Shown here: positions 1 through 58,545 of the stretch, in pieces
How the letters are laid out: each line of letters begins with the position of its first letter
How positions within the stretch are numbered: the first letter of the stretch is position 1
Origin: Bacteroidales bacterium
GTDB taxonomy: Bacteria > Bacteroidota > Bacteroidia > Bacteroidales > UBA10428
Assembly: GCA_016934395.1 (NCBI GenBank)
Contig: JAFGSZ010000086.1
Span: 62,001-126,000 of the forward strand
DNA: 64,000 nt
Direction of reading: 5' to 3'
The notes under the pieces: model-generated
Told to the model about the DNA's origin: nothing
Database searches by the model: none
Seen by the model: the letters and a program-made list of their open reading frames with translations, nothing else
Position numbers and translations under genes: made by a program

Positions 1-222
1 AGAAGTTATCACGGCAAAACCCACATCTGTCAGTTTAGAAGCCCAATTACCGTAACGGCTGCTGTGATCGCCCAAACCGTGTACCAGAATAATTAATCCT
101 TTAGGCTTATGCGCAGGCTGCCAGCTTTGAGCAAAAATTTTTATTCCGTCAAGGGTTTGCCAGTAATATTCTTTATGCTGTGATTCTTGTTTTTCAAACA
201 AATATTTCGACTCTGCTTTCAT
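1..222 (-). CDS. Alpha/beta hydrolase, monoacylglycerol lipase-like (N-terminal part)
   Basis: The gene starts at the ATG at 222 on the minus strand and runs off the left edge, so only the first 74 residues are visible. They contain LIILVHGLGDHSSRY (near residues 43-57), the oxyanion-hole HGxGxHS motif typical of monoacylglycerol lipase and lysophospholipase type hydrolases (Hydrolase_4 / S33 group). No signal peptide is visible, so a cytoplasmic lipase or esterase is likely. The catalytic Ser, Asp and His lie outside the window, so activity and exact substrate cannot be judged. It is divergent from yjbQ with about 110 bases between them. Confidence 0.75.
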   Translation of the reverse strand, partial: MKAESKYLFEKQESQHKEYYWQTLDGIKIFAQSWQPAHKPKGLIILVHGLGDHSSRYGNWASKLTDVGFAVITS

Positions 223-331
223 CAAAATTATCAATTAGTATTCATCTGCTGCTTTAGTAATATTCAATTATTTTATCTTTATTTTTTTTATTACTGATAC
301 CTAAACTGAATAACGAAATAAAAATAACAAA

Positions 332-742
332 ATGCAGGAAGTTATACAAATTCAAACCACTAAACGAAATGGTCTTTATGATATTACTCATGAAGTTCAG
401 GAAATTCTTGAGCAAAGTAAGGTTGAAACCGGTGTGGTCTCTGTATACGTACAGGGCGCCACTGCAGCAATTATGATCCAGGAAAACTGGGATGAATCGG
501 TTCAAAATGATATGGTTTCACTGTTAAAAAAACTCGTCCCCACAGGAATATGGGAACACGACGCACAGGATGATAATGCCGATTCGCACCTGAAAGCCGG
601 ATTAATTGGCCCAAGTGAAACCATCCCCATAATTTCCGGGCAACTTGGTCTTTCGACCTGGCAAAATATTTTTTTATGTGAATTTGACGGGCCCAGGAAT
701 GAACGAAGAATAGTAGTAACAATTTTTGATTCGGTAAAATAG
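332..742 (+). CDS. YjbQ family protein (UPF0047)
   Basis: This 136-residue protein is a full-length member of the YjbQ/UPF0047 family. The diagnostic C-terminal half is present: IWEHDAQDDNADSHLKAG (around residues 73-90), then a G-Q-L-x-L-x-TWQ-x-I-F-L-x-EFDGPR stretch ending in a conserved arginine-rich strand. Members form small trimers, and some have been reported to show weak thiamine-phosphate synthase activity. The in vivo role is unsettled, and I would not infer thiamine synthesis from this gene alone, although thiL lies 10 kb away. It ends 9 bases from the convergent queG, leaving little room for terminators. Confidence 0.85.
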   Translation: MQEVIQIQTTKRNGLYDITHEVQEILEQSKVETGVVSVYVQGATAAIMIQENWDESVQNDMVSLLKKLVPTGIWEHDAQDDNADSHLKAGLIGPSETIPIISGQLGLSTWQNIFLCEFDGPRNERRIVVTIFDSVK

Positions 743-54907: not shown

Positions 54908-56296
54908 TTAAGGTAATAATGTATAGGTGATTTTTAATTTAATTCTATTTGAATGACTACCACTGGATAATAAAACCCTGTTTGCGTCAACTGCATTATA
55001 AATTAAAGGAACAGTGTTTTCCGCCACAAATAAACTTAATCCGTAATTATCCTGGTTCCCGTTCCAAAAGTCCTGCATATAATAACCAATGTTGAATGAA
55101 TATTGAATGGTATCTCCATCAACCCTGCCTCCAAAATAATTTGATGCAGAAGTACTGCCACCAAGAAAATACGGGTCGTCCTGAATTATCCCCTCCATGC
55201 CGTCAGCCTCAATCTTTCTTAATCCCAGCTTTAAGGGTAAAGGATATGAATCTAAATCTTCGTCATCAGATTTTATAATTGGTAATATGAGTTCTGCCTT
55301 AAGTATTGATGCATTCCCTATTTCTTCCTTTACCTCATATAAATACGGAATTTTTAATTTGACTTTTGTCCCGCCAAGGGATTGTAAATAAACAACAGAA
55401 TCCTGATTAACAGTATCATTAAGAAATCCTATCTGTGATGTGGAATGGTTAAATTTAAAAAGATTAAGACGTTGATCAAGTATTGCATCATTAGAATTTT
55501 TATATAAAATATTGTAAATATAATCTTGTCCTCCTATAGTATCATTATGATAATACAATCTAATATTCGTCCCGTATGTACCTATTGCGGCCAGATTTAT
55601 ATAAAATAAGCCCCCACCGGCATCCTCATTTTTTACAGAGAAATAAAGACCTTTGTAATATGATTTAAAAAGTGTATCTGAAGCATCAGTATACATCGAA
55701 TCCCTGTCAATCTCAGGATTTAATAATTTTTCTCCGAACGCATTGTCAAGCCGTATTCTGAAAATTTTCAGCGAATCTGCAAAAACATAAGGATCACTTA
55801 TATTAATAGGAACCGGGTTAAATATTCCGCTTATATCCGCATTCGAAATGGTATCGCTAATATTCTGGGTTAATTCGTACACATTAAGCTTCGGAATTGC
55901 TGTAGAATCACCCATAAAATCATAATAGTATAAATCTAAAAATATAGAATCGGTTTGTGGATTAGGGCCAAACAAATTTGAATCACTGCGTCCATATTCT
56001 GTAATAAATTCTGCAGTAATTTCTCCAAAAACCGGATCAGTATATCTTCCCAGGGGAGATTGTTTATGGTTACGGGAATTTATTCCGGTTGTTTCCAGAG
56101 TATATGCTTCAACAGAAATTGTATCAACATATCCCACTGAAATCAGGTCACCTTCAGGTAATGTATCTAACCCTATCTTAAAGGGTTTCTCATCACATCC
56201 GGAAAAAATGATTATTAAAAGGAAAACTAGAAAAATCTTACTGAAATTTACCAAAAATATTTTGGATACGGGGAAAATGAAATTATTTTGAACCAT
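54908..56296 (-). CDS. DUF4270 lipoprotein
   Basis: The 462-residue protein starts with a lipoprotein signal (FLVFLLIIIFSGCDEK, lipid-bearing Cys at 34) and is beta-strand rich, with DUF4270 segments such as LPEGDLISVGYVDTISVEAY, PQTDSIFLDLYYYDF and YFSVKNEDAGGGLFYINL. It probably sits in the outer membrane; its role is unknown. Its start overlaps the GT5-like gene by 14 bases, indicating translational coupling, and glmS follows after 4 bases. The trio may concern cell-surface carbohydrate, but this is only positional. Confidence 0.85.
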   Translation of the reverse strand: MVQNNFIFPVSKIFLVNFSKIFLVFLLIIIFSGCDEKPFKIGLDTLPEGDLISVGYVDTISVEAYTLETTGINSRNHKQSPLGRYTDPVFGEITAEFITEYGRSDSNLFGPNPQTDSIFLDLYYYDFMGDSTAIPKLNVYELTQNISDTISNADISGIFNPVPINISDPYVFADSLKIFRIRLDNAFGEKLLNPEIDRDSMYTDASDTLFKSYYKGLYFSVKNEDAGGGLFYINLAAIGTYGTNIRLYYHNDTIGGQDYIYNILYKNSNDAILDQRLNLFKFNHSTSQIGFLNDTVNQDSVVYLQSLGGTKVKLKIPYLYEVKEEIGNASILKAELILPIIKSDDEDLDSYPLPLKLGLRKIEADGMEGIIQDDPYFLGGSTSASNYFGGRVDGDTIQYSFNIGYYMQDFWNGNQDNYGLSLFVAENTVPLIYNAVDANRVLLSSGSHSNRIKLKITYTLLP

Positions 56297-57110
56297 CTAT
56301 TACTTCGCTTAAAATTGTGCTATAAAAATTGGAATACGTATCAAGATAATTTTCCTCAGAAATATAATCTAATACCGGCTTATCGATTTTTGAAAGGTAT
56401 TTCTTCAATTCATTGTTTATGGTATTACTTCCAACAATTACTCCATCGGAATAATTAATAGCCAGTTTGGAATAATTTAAATACGAAGGATCGTCTAAAA
56501 TTGAAATTTTCTCTTCAGGCATCGCATCCATAAGTAATTTCTTCTTGAAATTGCTATCCAATGGATTTGTAAATTCATTATCATATAATGAAATAACCAC
56601 TCTCGAATCCATAAACAGCGGGTTGTCACTATACATTTGTTTCAGATATAATGGTACCATATGGGTAAACCATCCGTGGCAATGCACAATATCCGGCGAC
56701 CATTGAAGTTTGTTTACCGTTTCTAATACACCCCTTGCAAAAAAGATAGCCCGCTCATCATTATCCTCAAAGTCATTACCTTTTTGATCCTGAAAAATAA
56801 ATTTTCGCTGAAAATAATCCTCATTGTCAATAAAATATACCTGCATCCTGGCAGCCTGTATTGAAGCAACCTTAATAATCAGGGGATGGTCTGTATCATC
56901 TATTATTAAGTTCATCCCCGATAGCCGTATCACCTCATGCAGCTGATTTCTTCTTTCGTTTATACAACCATATTTTGGCATAAAGGTGCGTATCTCATTC
57001 CCTTTTTCCTGCATTCCCTGTGGTAAATTTCTCCCTATCAACGACATCTCCGATTCGGGCAGGTAAGGAGTAATTTCCTGTGAAATATATAAAACCTTTG
57101 TACCTTCCAT
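56283..57110 (-). CDS. Glycogen/starch synthase-like protein, N-terminal GT5 domain only
   Basis: From the ATG at 57110 the protein has 275 residues and matches only the N-terminal half of GT5 glycogen synthases: KVLYISQEITPYL, VYFIDNEDYFQRK, WSPDIVHCHGWFTHMVPLYL, and the VVISLYDNEF and YSDGVIVGSNT segments. The ADP-glucose-binding K-T-G-G-L motif is replaced by ESEMSLIG, and the whole C-terminal nucleotide-binding domain is missing. It cannot work as a normal GlgA. The same short form occurs beside panC in other Bacteroidota, so it is unlikely to be a fresh truncation. The upstream frame to 57146 overlaps the promoter box and is not used. Confidence 0.85.
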   Translation of the reverse strand: MEGTKVLYISQEITPYLPESEMSLIGRNLPQGMQEKGNEIRTFMPKYGCINERRNQLHEVIRLSGMNLIIDDTDHPLIIKVASIQAARMQVYFIDNEDYFQRKFIFQDQKGNDFEDNDERAIFFARGVLETVNKLQWSPDIVHCHGWFTHMVPLYLKQMYSDNPLFMDSRVVISLYDNEFTNPLDSNFKKKLLMDAMPEEKISILDDPSYLNYSKLAINYSDGVIVGSNTINNELKKYLSKIDKPVLDYISEENYLDTYSNFYSTILSEVIDGSK

Positions 57111-57143: not shown

Positions 57144-57151
57144 CAAAATTA
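57144..57151 (-). promoter_or_regulatory. Promoter -7 box of the GT5-like/DUF4270/glmS unit
   Basis: Minus-strand TAATTTTG fits TAnnTTTG and lies 33 bases before the ATG at 57110. No TTG at the right distance is seen. The box excludes the alternative TTG start at 57146. Confidence 0.45.
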
Positions 57152-57320: not shown

Positions 57321-57328
57321 TATATTTG
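57321..57328 (+). promoter_or_regulatory. Promoter -7 box of panC
   Basis: TATATTTG fits TAnnTTTG; a TTG at 57295-57297 is 23 bases upstream, slightly far. The box ends 8 bases before the panC ATG, so the transcript would have almost no leader. Confidence 0.5.
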
Positions 57329-57336
57329 CGGGCCAT

Positions 57337-58185
57337 ATGATACAAGTGATTGAACATATTAGAGAGTTGGACCCAATGAATAGAAATCTTCGGGAAAACG
57401 GCCGGACCATAGGTTTTGTGCCAACTATGGGTGCATTGCATGAGGGCCATCTTTCTTTAATTAAAAATTCAATTGAAAATAATGATGCTACTGTGGTAAG
57501 TATCTTCGTGAATCCTACACAGTTTAATGATCAAAATGACTTGCTTAATTACCCCCGTACTCTGGATGATGATCTAAAACTATTGAATACGCTTAAGTGT
57601 GATATTGTATTTGTTCCATCTGTTAAAGAAATGTACCCGGAAAAAGATACCCGTGTTTTTAATTTTGGAACCCTTGATAAAATAATGGAAGGCAAACACC
57701 GACCGGGACATTTTATCGGTGTGGCTCAAATCGTAAGTAAATTTTTTAATATAATACAGCCCGACAAGGCCTACTTTGGACAAAAAGACTTTCAACAACT
57801 GGCTATTATAAAAAAATTAGTAACAGATTATAATTATCCTGTCGAAATTATTCCCTGTCCTATTATTCGTGAAAATGATGGTCTGGCTATGAGTTCCAGG
57901 AATAGATTATTAAGCTCCGAGCAAAGAAAGCATGCCACATTAATATCCCAAGCACTTTTTAATGCTCAAAAAATGGCCGGTATAAATTCTGTTCAAAATG
58001 TGATTGATTATGTGGTTTCTACTATAAATAATGACCCTTTATTAGAAACTGAATATTTTGAAATTGTTGACAGTAATCAGTTGCTCCCTGTTAAATCCTG
58101 GGACGAACCCTCTTTTAAAGTGGGATGTGTAGCAGTAAAAATCGGAGAAATCAGATTAATAGACAATATTAATTTTATTTTGTAA
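57337..58185 (+). CDS. panC: Pantothenate synthetase
   Basis: PanC joins pantoate and beta-alanine to make pantothenate. The 282-residue protein has the ATP-binding PTMGALHEGHLSLI with its two His, VSIFVNPTQFND, GKHRPGHFIGVAQIVSKFF, AYFGQKDFQQLAII and AMSSRNRLLSSEQR (KMSKS-like). Length is normal. panD, which supplies beta-alanine, begins 9 bases downstream. Confidence 0.97.
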   Translation: MIQVIEHIRELDPMNRNLRENGRTIGFVPTMGALHEGHLSLIKNSIENNDATVVSIFVNPTQFNDQNDLLNYPRTLDDDLKLLNTLKCDIVFVPSVKEMYPEKDTRVFNFGTLDKIMEGKHRPGHFIGVAQIVSKFFNIIQPDKAYFGQKDFQQLAIIKKLVTDYNYPVEIIPCPIIRENDGLAMSSRNRLLSSEQRKHATLISQALFNAQKMAGINSVQNVIDYVVSTINNDPLLETEYFEIVDSNQLLPVKSWDEPSFKVGCVAVKIGEIRLIDNINFIL

Positions 58186-58194
58186 ATTTGTATC

Positions 58195-58545
58195 ATGTTT
58201 GTTGAAGTCGTAAAATCGAAAATTCATAAAGTAACCATCACAGAAGCAAACCTGCATTATGTGGGAAGTATTACCATTGATGAAGATCTGATGGATGCTG
58301 CAAATATTATTGAAAATGAGAAAGTGCAGATTGTGAATATCAACAATGGTGAACGGCTTGAAACTTATGTAATTACAGGGCAACGGGGATCCGGAGAGGT
58401 ATGTCTTAATGGGCCTGCTGCCCGAAAAGCTGCAATCGGTGACGTAATTATTATTATTGCTTACGCTATGATGGATGTTTCGGAAGCTAAAATGTTTAAA
58501 CCCACCATAATTTTCCCCGATACAGCAAAAAACAAATTAGTATAA
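58195..58545 (+). CDS. panD: Aspartate 1-decarboxylase
   Basis: PanD makes beta-alanine for panC. The 116-residue proenzyme has the self-cleavage site G24-S25 ([16 protein letters not shown]), which gives the pyruvoyl group, and [27 protein letters not shown]. The usual context around the cleavage site is kept. A TAAATTTG box (58183-58190) that includes the panC stop codon lies just before the ATG, so panD may also have its own promoter. Confidence 0.97.

What the first reader, a model, noticed from the sequence alone, without database searches (positions are those of the whole stretch)
56283..57110. GT5 half-protein without the ADP-glucose motif, coupled to DUF4270 and glmS
Only the N-terminal half of a glycogen synthase is present, the K-T-G-G-L motif is lost, and the stop overlaps the start of a DUF4270 lipoprotein gene. 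It cannot be a normal GlgA, yet the frame is intact. It may have become a sugar-binding or regulatory protein tied to cell-surface carbohydrate.
Basis: partly seen in the sequence, partly recalled or inferred. Interest (0 to 1): 0.5.

Follow-up and report, generated by a model that had tools for sequence, protein, structure and literature searches.

The report
Conserved dead half of glycogen synthase
Bacteria of the large Bacteroides group keep a shrunken glycogen-synthase relative that can hardly build glycogen any more, usually sits beside a gene related to outer-membrane assembly, and survives in cockroach-symbiont-like miniature genomes, so it probably does an unrecognised housekeeping job by binding something.

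Summary
In detail: window 57110-56283 (minus strand) is an intact 275-aa protein made of the N-terminal glycogen-synthase (GT5) domain, without K-x-G-G-L and without the donor-binding domain. It overlaps a DUF4270 gene by 14 bp; glmS follows. DUF4270 is the BamH family (outer-membrane protein assembly), not a carbohydrate protein. The short form is not decay: it arose once (100/100), by loss of the inner C-domain while the terminal helix stayed (AlphaFold model, Z 24.5 to E. coli GlgA end to end). It occurs in 28 of 28 sampled class members and 28 of 89 other phylum genomes; outside the class the gene, short or full length, mostly heads a BamH-BamG operon. Catalytic residues are gone, but R41, R53, H58, R62 and Q90 are invariant in the operon lineage and not in canonical second GlgA copies. 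It is kept in 49 of 49 Blattabacterium-like genomes, while 8 of 8 tiny genomes tested lack BamH and BamG; dN/dS is about 0.1. Best reading: a non-catalytic cytoplasmic binding protein with a core role, loosely tied to BAM; ligand unknown. A 2024 review already notes a conserved 'fragment' in one sentence; I found no functional study.

The parts
56283..57110 (-). GT5h: 275-aa non-catalytic GT5 N-domain protein (the finding)
   Evidence: PF08323 180 bits, no PF00534; K15, D137, H161 equivalents lost; AF2 pLDDT 90.9, pTM 0.91
56961..56990 (-). codons of residues 41-50, holding signature residue R41, within the conserved block of residues 39-103
   Evidence: coordinates are my arithmetic from the start codon at 57110
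56841..56954 (-). codons of residues 53-90: R53, H58, R62, Q90 signature of the operon lineage
   Evidence: 72 of 72 short, 3 of 3 degenerate full-length, 13 of 13 other full-length proteins of the lineage; 1, 2, 3 and 0 of 17 second-copy GlgAs
56286..56348 (-). codons of the C-terminal helix (residues 255-273, then 2 residues), equivalent to GlgA's last helix
54908..56296 (-). DUF4270 / BamH-family lipoprotein, 462 aa, start overlaps the GT5h stop by 14 bp
   Evidence: NF053686, 73 bits, below its cut-off of 420; PF14092, 142 bits
53068..54903 (-). glmS, 611 aa, third gene of the run
   Evidence: SIS and GATase domains
57337..58185 (+). panC, divergent neighbour (then panD 58195-58545)

Best explanation
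GT5h is a pseudo-glycogen-synthase. An ancestral full-length GT5 enzyme, encoded at the head of an outer-membrane operon (GT5, GmhB-like phosphatase, BamH, BamG, TPR protein), carried besides its active site a second conserved site on strands 2-4 (R41, R53, H58, R62, Q90). Once, in the common ancestor of Bacteroidia and several sister classes, the donor-binding domain was lost cleanly while the terminal helix was kept, and the old active site was abandoned. What remains is a stable cytoplasmic binding protein whose second site holds an anionic ligand or a partner protein. It most likely works as a sensor or scaffold that adjusts a basic envelope or metabolic process; being made with BamH matches its level to outer-membrane assembly, but BamH is not its sole or obligate client. 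SHOWN: domain content, loss of catalytic residues, single origin, conserved gene order, invariant second set of residues, purifying selection, retention in endosymbionts. INFERRED: co-transcription, non-catalysis, ligand or partner binding, sensor or scaffold role.
For: No K15/TGGL, D137, H161 or whole C-domain here, and these are replaced in most short forms (at single sites some short rows match: K15 in 5, D137 in 14, H161 in 10 of 72). All 43 short rows in the tree form one side of a branch at 100/100. The model aligns to E. coli GlgA residues 1..477 with Z 24.5, rmsd 2.8, 244 residues, so the final helix matches GlgA's last helix; tails of 39 of 73 short forms exceed the 95th percentile of shuffled tails against a full-length tail profile. 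R53, H58, R62 and Q90 are invariant in 72/72 short + 3/3 + 13/13 full-length proteins of the lineage but are seen in 1, 2, 3 and 0 of 17 second-copy GlgAs, and all four plus R41 are invariant in the 50 rows of A3. BamH is next in 22 of 24 class loci fetched and 62 of 77 evaluable named loci; outside the class BamH and/or BamG lies downstream in 31 of 33 loci. Kept in 49 of 49 g107 genomes of 0.5-0.6 Mb; dN/dS 0.08-0.17, like the neighbouring glmS at 0.09-0.14; signature kept in 4 of 4 endosymbiont proteins checked.
Against: No ligand, partner or phenotype is known. Retention where BamH, BamG and GlmS are absent weakens every operon-based guess. Three of the 49 g107 matches carry stops (G297 and G301 two each, G317 one), the G339 copy lacks D116-N117 and the last helix, and some 0.3 Mb and all nine 0.2 Mb genomes lack the gene, so it is dispensable at the extreme; 2 of 113 good-quality genomes of one order also lack a match. 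BamA (POTRA) and GT5h are not co-retained: 5 genomes with POTRA lack GT5h (a sixth has only a sub-cut-off hit), 2 with GT5h show no POTRA. Presumed Chlorobia have a degenerate full-length GT5 but no BamH (0 of 5) and only weak BamG-model hits (4 of 5, 27-42 bits). The alignment around residues 50-60 of the second-copy GlgAs is gappy, so the signature contrast may be inflated. The cleft loops are only slightly more conserved than the opposite loops (0.59 against 0.49, p 0.04).
Confidence: 0.5

Rival explanations
1. GT5h is itself an enzyme of a new kind: the R/H/R/Q/N set forms a new active site (for example on a phosphorylated or nucleotide substrate) that works without the lost domain.
For: Many invariant polar residues among short forms (R41, R53, H58, E59, R62, K80, Q90, N96, R120, H143). 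BT_4307, by inference the B. thetaiotaomicron orthologue, was one of 16 proteins caught by a vitamin B12 photoprobe in both screens, so it may bind a large nucleotide-like ligand.
Against: No known one-domain GT-B enzyme of this type (recalled); the residues lie on strands 2-4 and the loop between rather than at the usual catalytic cleft (inference); the photoprobe list also holds proteins not known to bind B12, such as trigger factor.
Confidence: 0.2
2. GT5h is a dedicated accessory of the BAM complex: a cytoplasmic factor that controls synthesis or delivery of BamH/BamG or their clients.
For: Gene order with BamH and BamG across the phylum; in F. johnsoniae BamH is Fjoh_0823 and the authors built an inducible promoter from the 100 bp upstream of fjoh_0824, consistent with co-transcription (inference).
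Against: Kept in tiny genomes without BamH and BamG (8 of 8 tested); in eight of nine loci of genus g4 it stands directly before glmS, and BamH lies elsewhere in 6 of 7 of these genomes tested; not co-retained with POTRA/BamA.
Confidence: 0.12
3. GT5h regulates GlmS or amino-sugar supply (as RapZ or GlmR do elsewhere, recalled).
For: glmS is the next gene after BamH in 19 of 22 class loci and 34 of 56 named loci, and is directly adjacent to GT5h in the two Blattabacterium-like loci laid out and in nine loci of relatives.
Against: Outside the class glmS was not seen in the operon; G170 and G339 keep GT5h without a GlmS found by my profile among their ORFs.
Confidence: 0.12
4. It is one half of a split glycosyltransferase whose donor half is encoded elsewhere.
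For: Two-protein GT-B enzymes exist (Alg13/Alg14, recalled).
Against: A GT5 C-half query finds only frames of 381, 433 and 384 aa in this genome; two of the three proteins were checked and hold both Glyco_transf_4 and Glycos_transf_1 domains. The active-site residues of the N-half itself are gone, and the last helix already caps the N-domain.
Confidence: 0.04
5. Relict gene kept only for translational coupling or by neutral drift.
For: Stop/start overlap with BamH here.
Against: Complete matches in relatives are 49-71% identical against 21-37% for the BamH matches; dN/dS about 0.1 in endosymbionts where BamH is gone.
Confidence: 0.02

Closest known systems
GlgA, ADP-glucose glycogen/starch synthase (GT5)
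   Same: N-terminal Rossmann domain and last helix; Z 22-28 to GlgA and starch synthases
   Different: No donor-binding domain, no K-x-G-G-L, no D137/H161/R300/K305/E377 equivalents; far below the NCBIfam GlgA cut-offs
Plant STARCH SYNTHASE 5 (SS5), a non-canonical GT5 protein
   Same: GT5 relative without the X-X-G-G-L motifs, considered inactive, yet it promotes starch granule formation (passages of PMC9332351 and PMC10801857). That it also lacks much of the C-terminal domain is recalled; the primary paper PMC7401018 is not held
   Different: Plastid protein of granule initiation; independent origin assumed, not tested; no BAM linkage
[quoted passage not shown])
   Same: Almost certainly this very gene; the same passage proposes that Bacteroidetes gained a GT3 synthase by horizontal transfer
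   Different: The passages I saw give no structure, neighbours, function or retention data
BamH / BamG of the Bacteroidota BAM complex (PMC12611786, PMC12578637; passages)
   Same: Genes next to GT5h are of these families
   Different: GT5h shows no obvious signal peptide (by eye, no predictor run) and is not mentioned in the passages I saw; 'glycogen' occurs 0 times in both main texts

Membership tests
GT5 glycogen synthase (GlgA), active enzyme | GT5 N-domain (PF08323) | tested here: met
   180 bits, residues 5-237; fold Z 24.5 to 2qzs
GT5 glycogen synthase (GlgA), active enzyme | K-x-G-G-L at E. coli residues 15-19 | tested here: not met
   P-E-S-E-M here; G17 and G18 in 0 of 72 short forms
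GT5 glycogen synthase (GlgA), active enzyme | D137 and H161 in the N-domain | tested here: not met
   G146 and Y176 here; D in 14 of 72 and H in 10 of 72 short forms
GT5 glycogen synthase (GlgA), active enzyme | C-terminal donor domain with R300, K305, E377 | tested here: not met
   Domain absent; no stand-alone C-half found in the genome
NCBIfam GlgA/starch synthase models (PRK14098, TIGR02095) | Curated whole-protein score | tested here: not met
   177 of 754 and 113 of 328 bits needed
Plant SS5-like non-catalytic GT5 | GT5 relative without catalytic glycine-rich motifs | tested here: met
   comparison with SS5 rests on paper passages
Plant SS5-like non-catalytic GT5 | Common descent of the truncation | not tested
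   No SS5 sequence was included in the tree
Split GT-B enzyme (Alg13/Alg14 type) | Separate gene for the donor half | tested here: not met
   this genome only
BamH (downstream gene 56296-54908) | DUF4270 domain | tested here: met
   PF14092, 142 bits, cut-off 27
BamH (downstream gene 56296-54908) | NCBIfam BamH equivalog cut-off | tested here: not met
   NF053686 73 of 420 bits, NF053687 50 of 670 bits; hence 'BamH-family', not a proven BAM subunit

The most novel reading that the evidence does not exclude
GT5h is a core, near-essential protein of Bacteroidota with a new function: a glycogen synthase whose second, non-catalytic site was the selected feature. The lineage first lost catalysis (full-length degenerate forms in presumed Chlorobia and others), then the whole donor domain, keeping a ligand- or partner-binding site that serves a basic cell process, so that it outlives BamH, BamG and even GlmS in shrinking symbiont genomes.
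Probability: 0.4. Interest if true: 0.75.

Novelty: new variant of a known kind. Interest (0 to 1): 0.55.

Why it matters
The gene is annotated as glycogen synthase and has been used that way: one paper takes BT_4307 as a sign of possible glycogen storage in B. thetaiotaomicron (passage), and another lists glgA, glycogen biosynthesis, as retained in the 263-kb Uzinura genome (passage). If the protein cannot make glycogen, these inferences lose their support. A protein kept across the class that includes major gut bacteria, next to outer-membrane assembly genes and retained in miniature symbiont genomes of the cockroach-symbiont type, is a candidate for an undiscovered housekeeping function, and it is directly testable by deletion and ligand screening.

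Tried and rejected
Split enzyme: the C-half search of this genome found only GT4-type frames (two of three checked). Full GlgA elsewhere: the other PF08323 hits in the genome are a GT4-type protein, a GT3 glycogen synthase and a pentapeptide-repeat/GT4 fusion. BAM-only role: against it are the endosymbionts and the lack of co-retention with POTRA. GlmS-only role: against it are G170 and G339. Gene-content difference between GT5h-bearing G170/G339 and GT5h-lacking G323: the list holds KsgA-like and QueA-like genes and short ORFs that look rDNA-derived (named by eye), which looks like a region or assembly loss, so no functional partner could be read from it. Cleft-loop conservation was only weakly informative. 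Literature: searches listed no functional study of this protein that I recognised; supplementary files (Tn-seq tables) could not be opened. The place of the presumed Chlorobia next to the short clade rests on 66/39 support only.

Rows dropped and chosen: 60 of the 117 other phylum genomes were laid out for neighbourhoods, chosen by me (24 of 28 class members, 36 of 89 others); three presumed Chlorobia loci were set aside before the 31 of 33 count. The 31 are 28 rows plus two coordinates (L096, L102) and one (L120); L104 and L106 are the two without. One of 80 named loci (L226) was not recognised by my profile; 2 ended at the contig. The tree used 81 of 112 proteins: all 38 full-length ones and 43 of 74 short ones. 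The residue table used 72 of the 74 short rows, leaving out those of 235 and 353 aa. Its 13 'linked' full-length rows include L106, which has no BamH or BamG in the stretch read, and leave out L114, L116, L120 and L121; its 17 second copies include E. coli GlgA and leave out L147.

Full report
OBSERVATION. The gene runs on the minus strand from ATG 57110 to the stop ending at 56283 (275 aa). Its only Pfam match over cut-off is the GT5 N-domain (PF08323, residues 5-237, 180 bits), and it falls far below every curated GlgA cut-off listed. Its stop overlaps the start of a DUF4270 gene by 14 bp, and glmS follows 4 bp after that gene. panC lies divergently upstream.

NEIGHBOUR IDENTITY. DUF4270 is the domain of BamH, a surface lipoprotein of the Bacteroidota BAM complex. 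NCBIfam's BamH models match the window protein below their cut-offs (73 of 420 bits, 50 of 670), so I call it BamH-family. From passages of two 2025 papers: BamH is Bt4306 and Fjoh_0823; it is essential in F. johnsoniae unless BamA carries a suppressor change, and important but not essential in B. thetaiotaomicron (PMC12611786, PMC12578637). The F. johnsoniae authors built an inducible promoter from the 100 bp upstream of fjoh_0824, which fits co-transcription with the gene before bamH; this, and that fjoh_0824 is the GT5h gene, is my inference. Neither main text contains the word glycogen.

DISTRIBUTION. 36 of 39 relatives matched (three none, one of the 36 only a fragment). In a phylum sample of 117 other genomes each one matched the profile. 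All 28 of the window's class have short open frames (258-316 aa, one 397). Of the other 89, by my count 28 have short frames (257-325 aa) and 61 long ones (488 aa or more). In one order of the same class 136 of 148 matched, 111 of 113 of good quality. The class is taken to be Bacteroidia from the titles of named relatives.

ONE ORIGIN BY DOMAIN LOSS. In a tree of N-domains (81 rows) the 43 short rows are one side of a branch (100/100). Second-copy canonical GlgAs with E. coli GlgA form another (100/98), and BamH-linked full-length proteins lie between. The C-terminal tail of the short forms resembles the last helix of full-length proteins (39 of 73 above the 95th percentile of shuffled tails). 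The AlphaFold model (pLDDT 90.9, pTM 0.91) aligns to E. coli GlgA over chain residues 1..477 (Z 24.5, rmsd 2.8, 244 residues) and to starch synthase IV over 23..516 (Z 28.0). So the inner C-domain went while the crossing helix stayed: this is not a broken gene.

CATALYSIS LOST, SECOND SITE KEPT. Positions K15, G17, G18, L19, Y95, D137 and H161 of GlgA, conserved in linked and second-copy full-length proteins, are replaced in most short forms (two second copies, L141 and L146, read M-T-G-G-M). Three full-length proteins from presumed Chlorobia (f33; the name is inferred) already lack K15, R300 and K305, and four other full-length ones (L114, L116, L120, L121) are degenerate at some sites. In contrast R41, R53, H58, R62 and Q90 are invariant in 72 short, 3 degenerate and 13 other full-length proteins of the lineage (12 with BamH or BamG downstream, and L106 without), but are found in 4, 1, 2, 3 and 0 of 17 second-copy GlgAs. 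They are also invariant in the 50 rows of A3. I read this as a second functional site older than the loss of catalysis.

OPERON. Class members: BamH next in 22 of 24 loci laid out, then glmS in 19 of those 22. In 80 named genome loci, BamH is next in 62 of 77 evaluable, glmS after BamH in 34 of 56, and panC divergent in 47 of 76. Outside the class the usual order is GT5 (short or full), in many full-length cases a GmhB-like phosphatase, then BamH, BamG, and a TPR protein. BamH and/or BamG lie downstream in 31 of 33 loci after three presumed Chlorobia are set aside. Four of four proteins tested in the BamG place hit the NCBIfam BamG model at E 1e-53 to 3e-75, one of them over its cut-off. In eight of nine loci of genus g4, and in L011 of another family, GT5h is directly followed by glmS. 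In seven g4 genomes tested BamH stands beside BamG elsewhere in five, on a different contig from BamG in one, and was not found in one.

ENDOSYMBIONTS. In family f62 (68 genomes) all 49 of the 0.5-0.6 Mb genus g107 (Blattabacterium-like, name inferred from size) have GT5h; three of these matches contain stops. A 345-kb genome (G170) has it and a 337-kb one of the same genus (G323) lacks it cleanly, the flanks lying about 40 bp apart. G339 has exactly the 263,431 bp that PMC3971599 gives for Uzinura and has GT5h without D116-N117 and the last helix. G326 (1.3 Mb) and G338 also have it; G340 shows a remnant with stops; g145 (2), g147 (2) and all nine 0.2 Mb genomes show none. PF14092 and BamG were found in 0 of 8 of these genomes tested. 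GlmS and PanC were not found by profile among the ORFs of G170 and G339. BamA (POTRA) is not co-retained: five genomes have POTRA without GT5h and two the reverse. Among four g107 proteins dN/dS is 0.08-0.17, as for glmS in the same loci (0.09-0.14). So GT5h is selected where BamH and BamG are gone, yet it is lost in the most reduced genomes.

NO OTHER GlgA, NO C-HALF. The other GT5-model hits of the window's genome (35-56 bits) are a GT4-type protein next to a GH57, a GT3 glycogen synthase (PF05693, 332 bits) on the same contig, and a pentapeptide-repeat/GT4 fusion. A C-half query found only GT frames of 381, 433 and 384 aa. PMC11046441 (passages only) proposes that Bacteroidetes gained GT3 horizontally and says that they conserved a fragment of GlgA-GT5; so the fragment's existence is in print.

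OTHER PRINTED TRACES. BT_4307, by position and annotation the B. thetaiotaomicron GT5h (inference), was one of 16 proteins enriched by a B12 photoprobe in both screens (log2 2.61 and 1.05; PMC8941943 section 5). It is cited as a potential glycogen synthase in PMC10797578 (passage). Uzinura glgA is listed under glycogen biosynthesis in PMC3971599 (passages).

MECHANISM. Most likely (0.5) a non-catalytic binding protein, sensor or scaffold, acting through the second site. Rivals: a new enzyme (0.2), a BAM accessory (0.12), a GlmS regulator (0.12), a split enzyme (0.04), a relict (0.02). Nothing here identifies the ligand.

VERDICT. Real and conserved, not new as a bare fact, but the gene order with BamH/BamG, the kept helix, the second site and the symbiont retention as a non-catalytic protein were not found in my literature searches. 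Interest 0.55.

Noticed in passing
L109:5196-6665, L110:6154-7623, L111:6172-7638 (family f33, presumed Chlorobia): Full-length GT5 proteins that lack K15, R300 and K305 equivalents; these genomes showed one GT5 match each, so an annotation as working starch synthase is doubtful.
   Followed up: partly
G000:C60:16945-19418 and G000:C38:53113-54327 (own genome, outside the window): A second BamH-family gene directly followed by a BamG gene, and a further BamG on another contig: apparently a BamH2-BamG2 pair.
   Followed up: partly
Loci such as L113, L089, L091, L114 (after BamG): A TPR protein of about 425-446 aa ending near C-Y-[AG]-W-I, conserved as the gene after BamG in many loci outside the class; two tested gave almost only TPR families in Pfam.
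   Followed up: no
G170:C1:146662-149028 and G323:C1:138694-140991 (bamA): Within one symbiont genus, where flanking DNA is mostly 85-95% identical, BamA is only 39% identical in protein; G323 is also the one that lost GT5h.
   Followed up: partly
L004:565-3237 (own genome C46): An 891-aa protein joining pentapeptide repeats to a GT4-type glycosyltransferase.
   Followed up: no
window 57144-57151 (-) and 57321-57328 (+): TAnnTTTG boxes, like the Bacteroidota -7 element (recalled), upstream of GT5h and of panC in the divergent intergenic region; may be chance.
   Followed up: no
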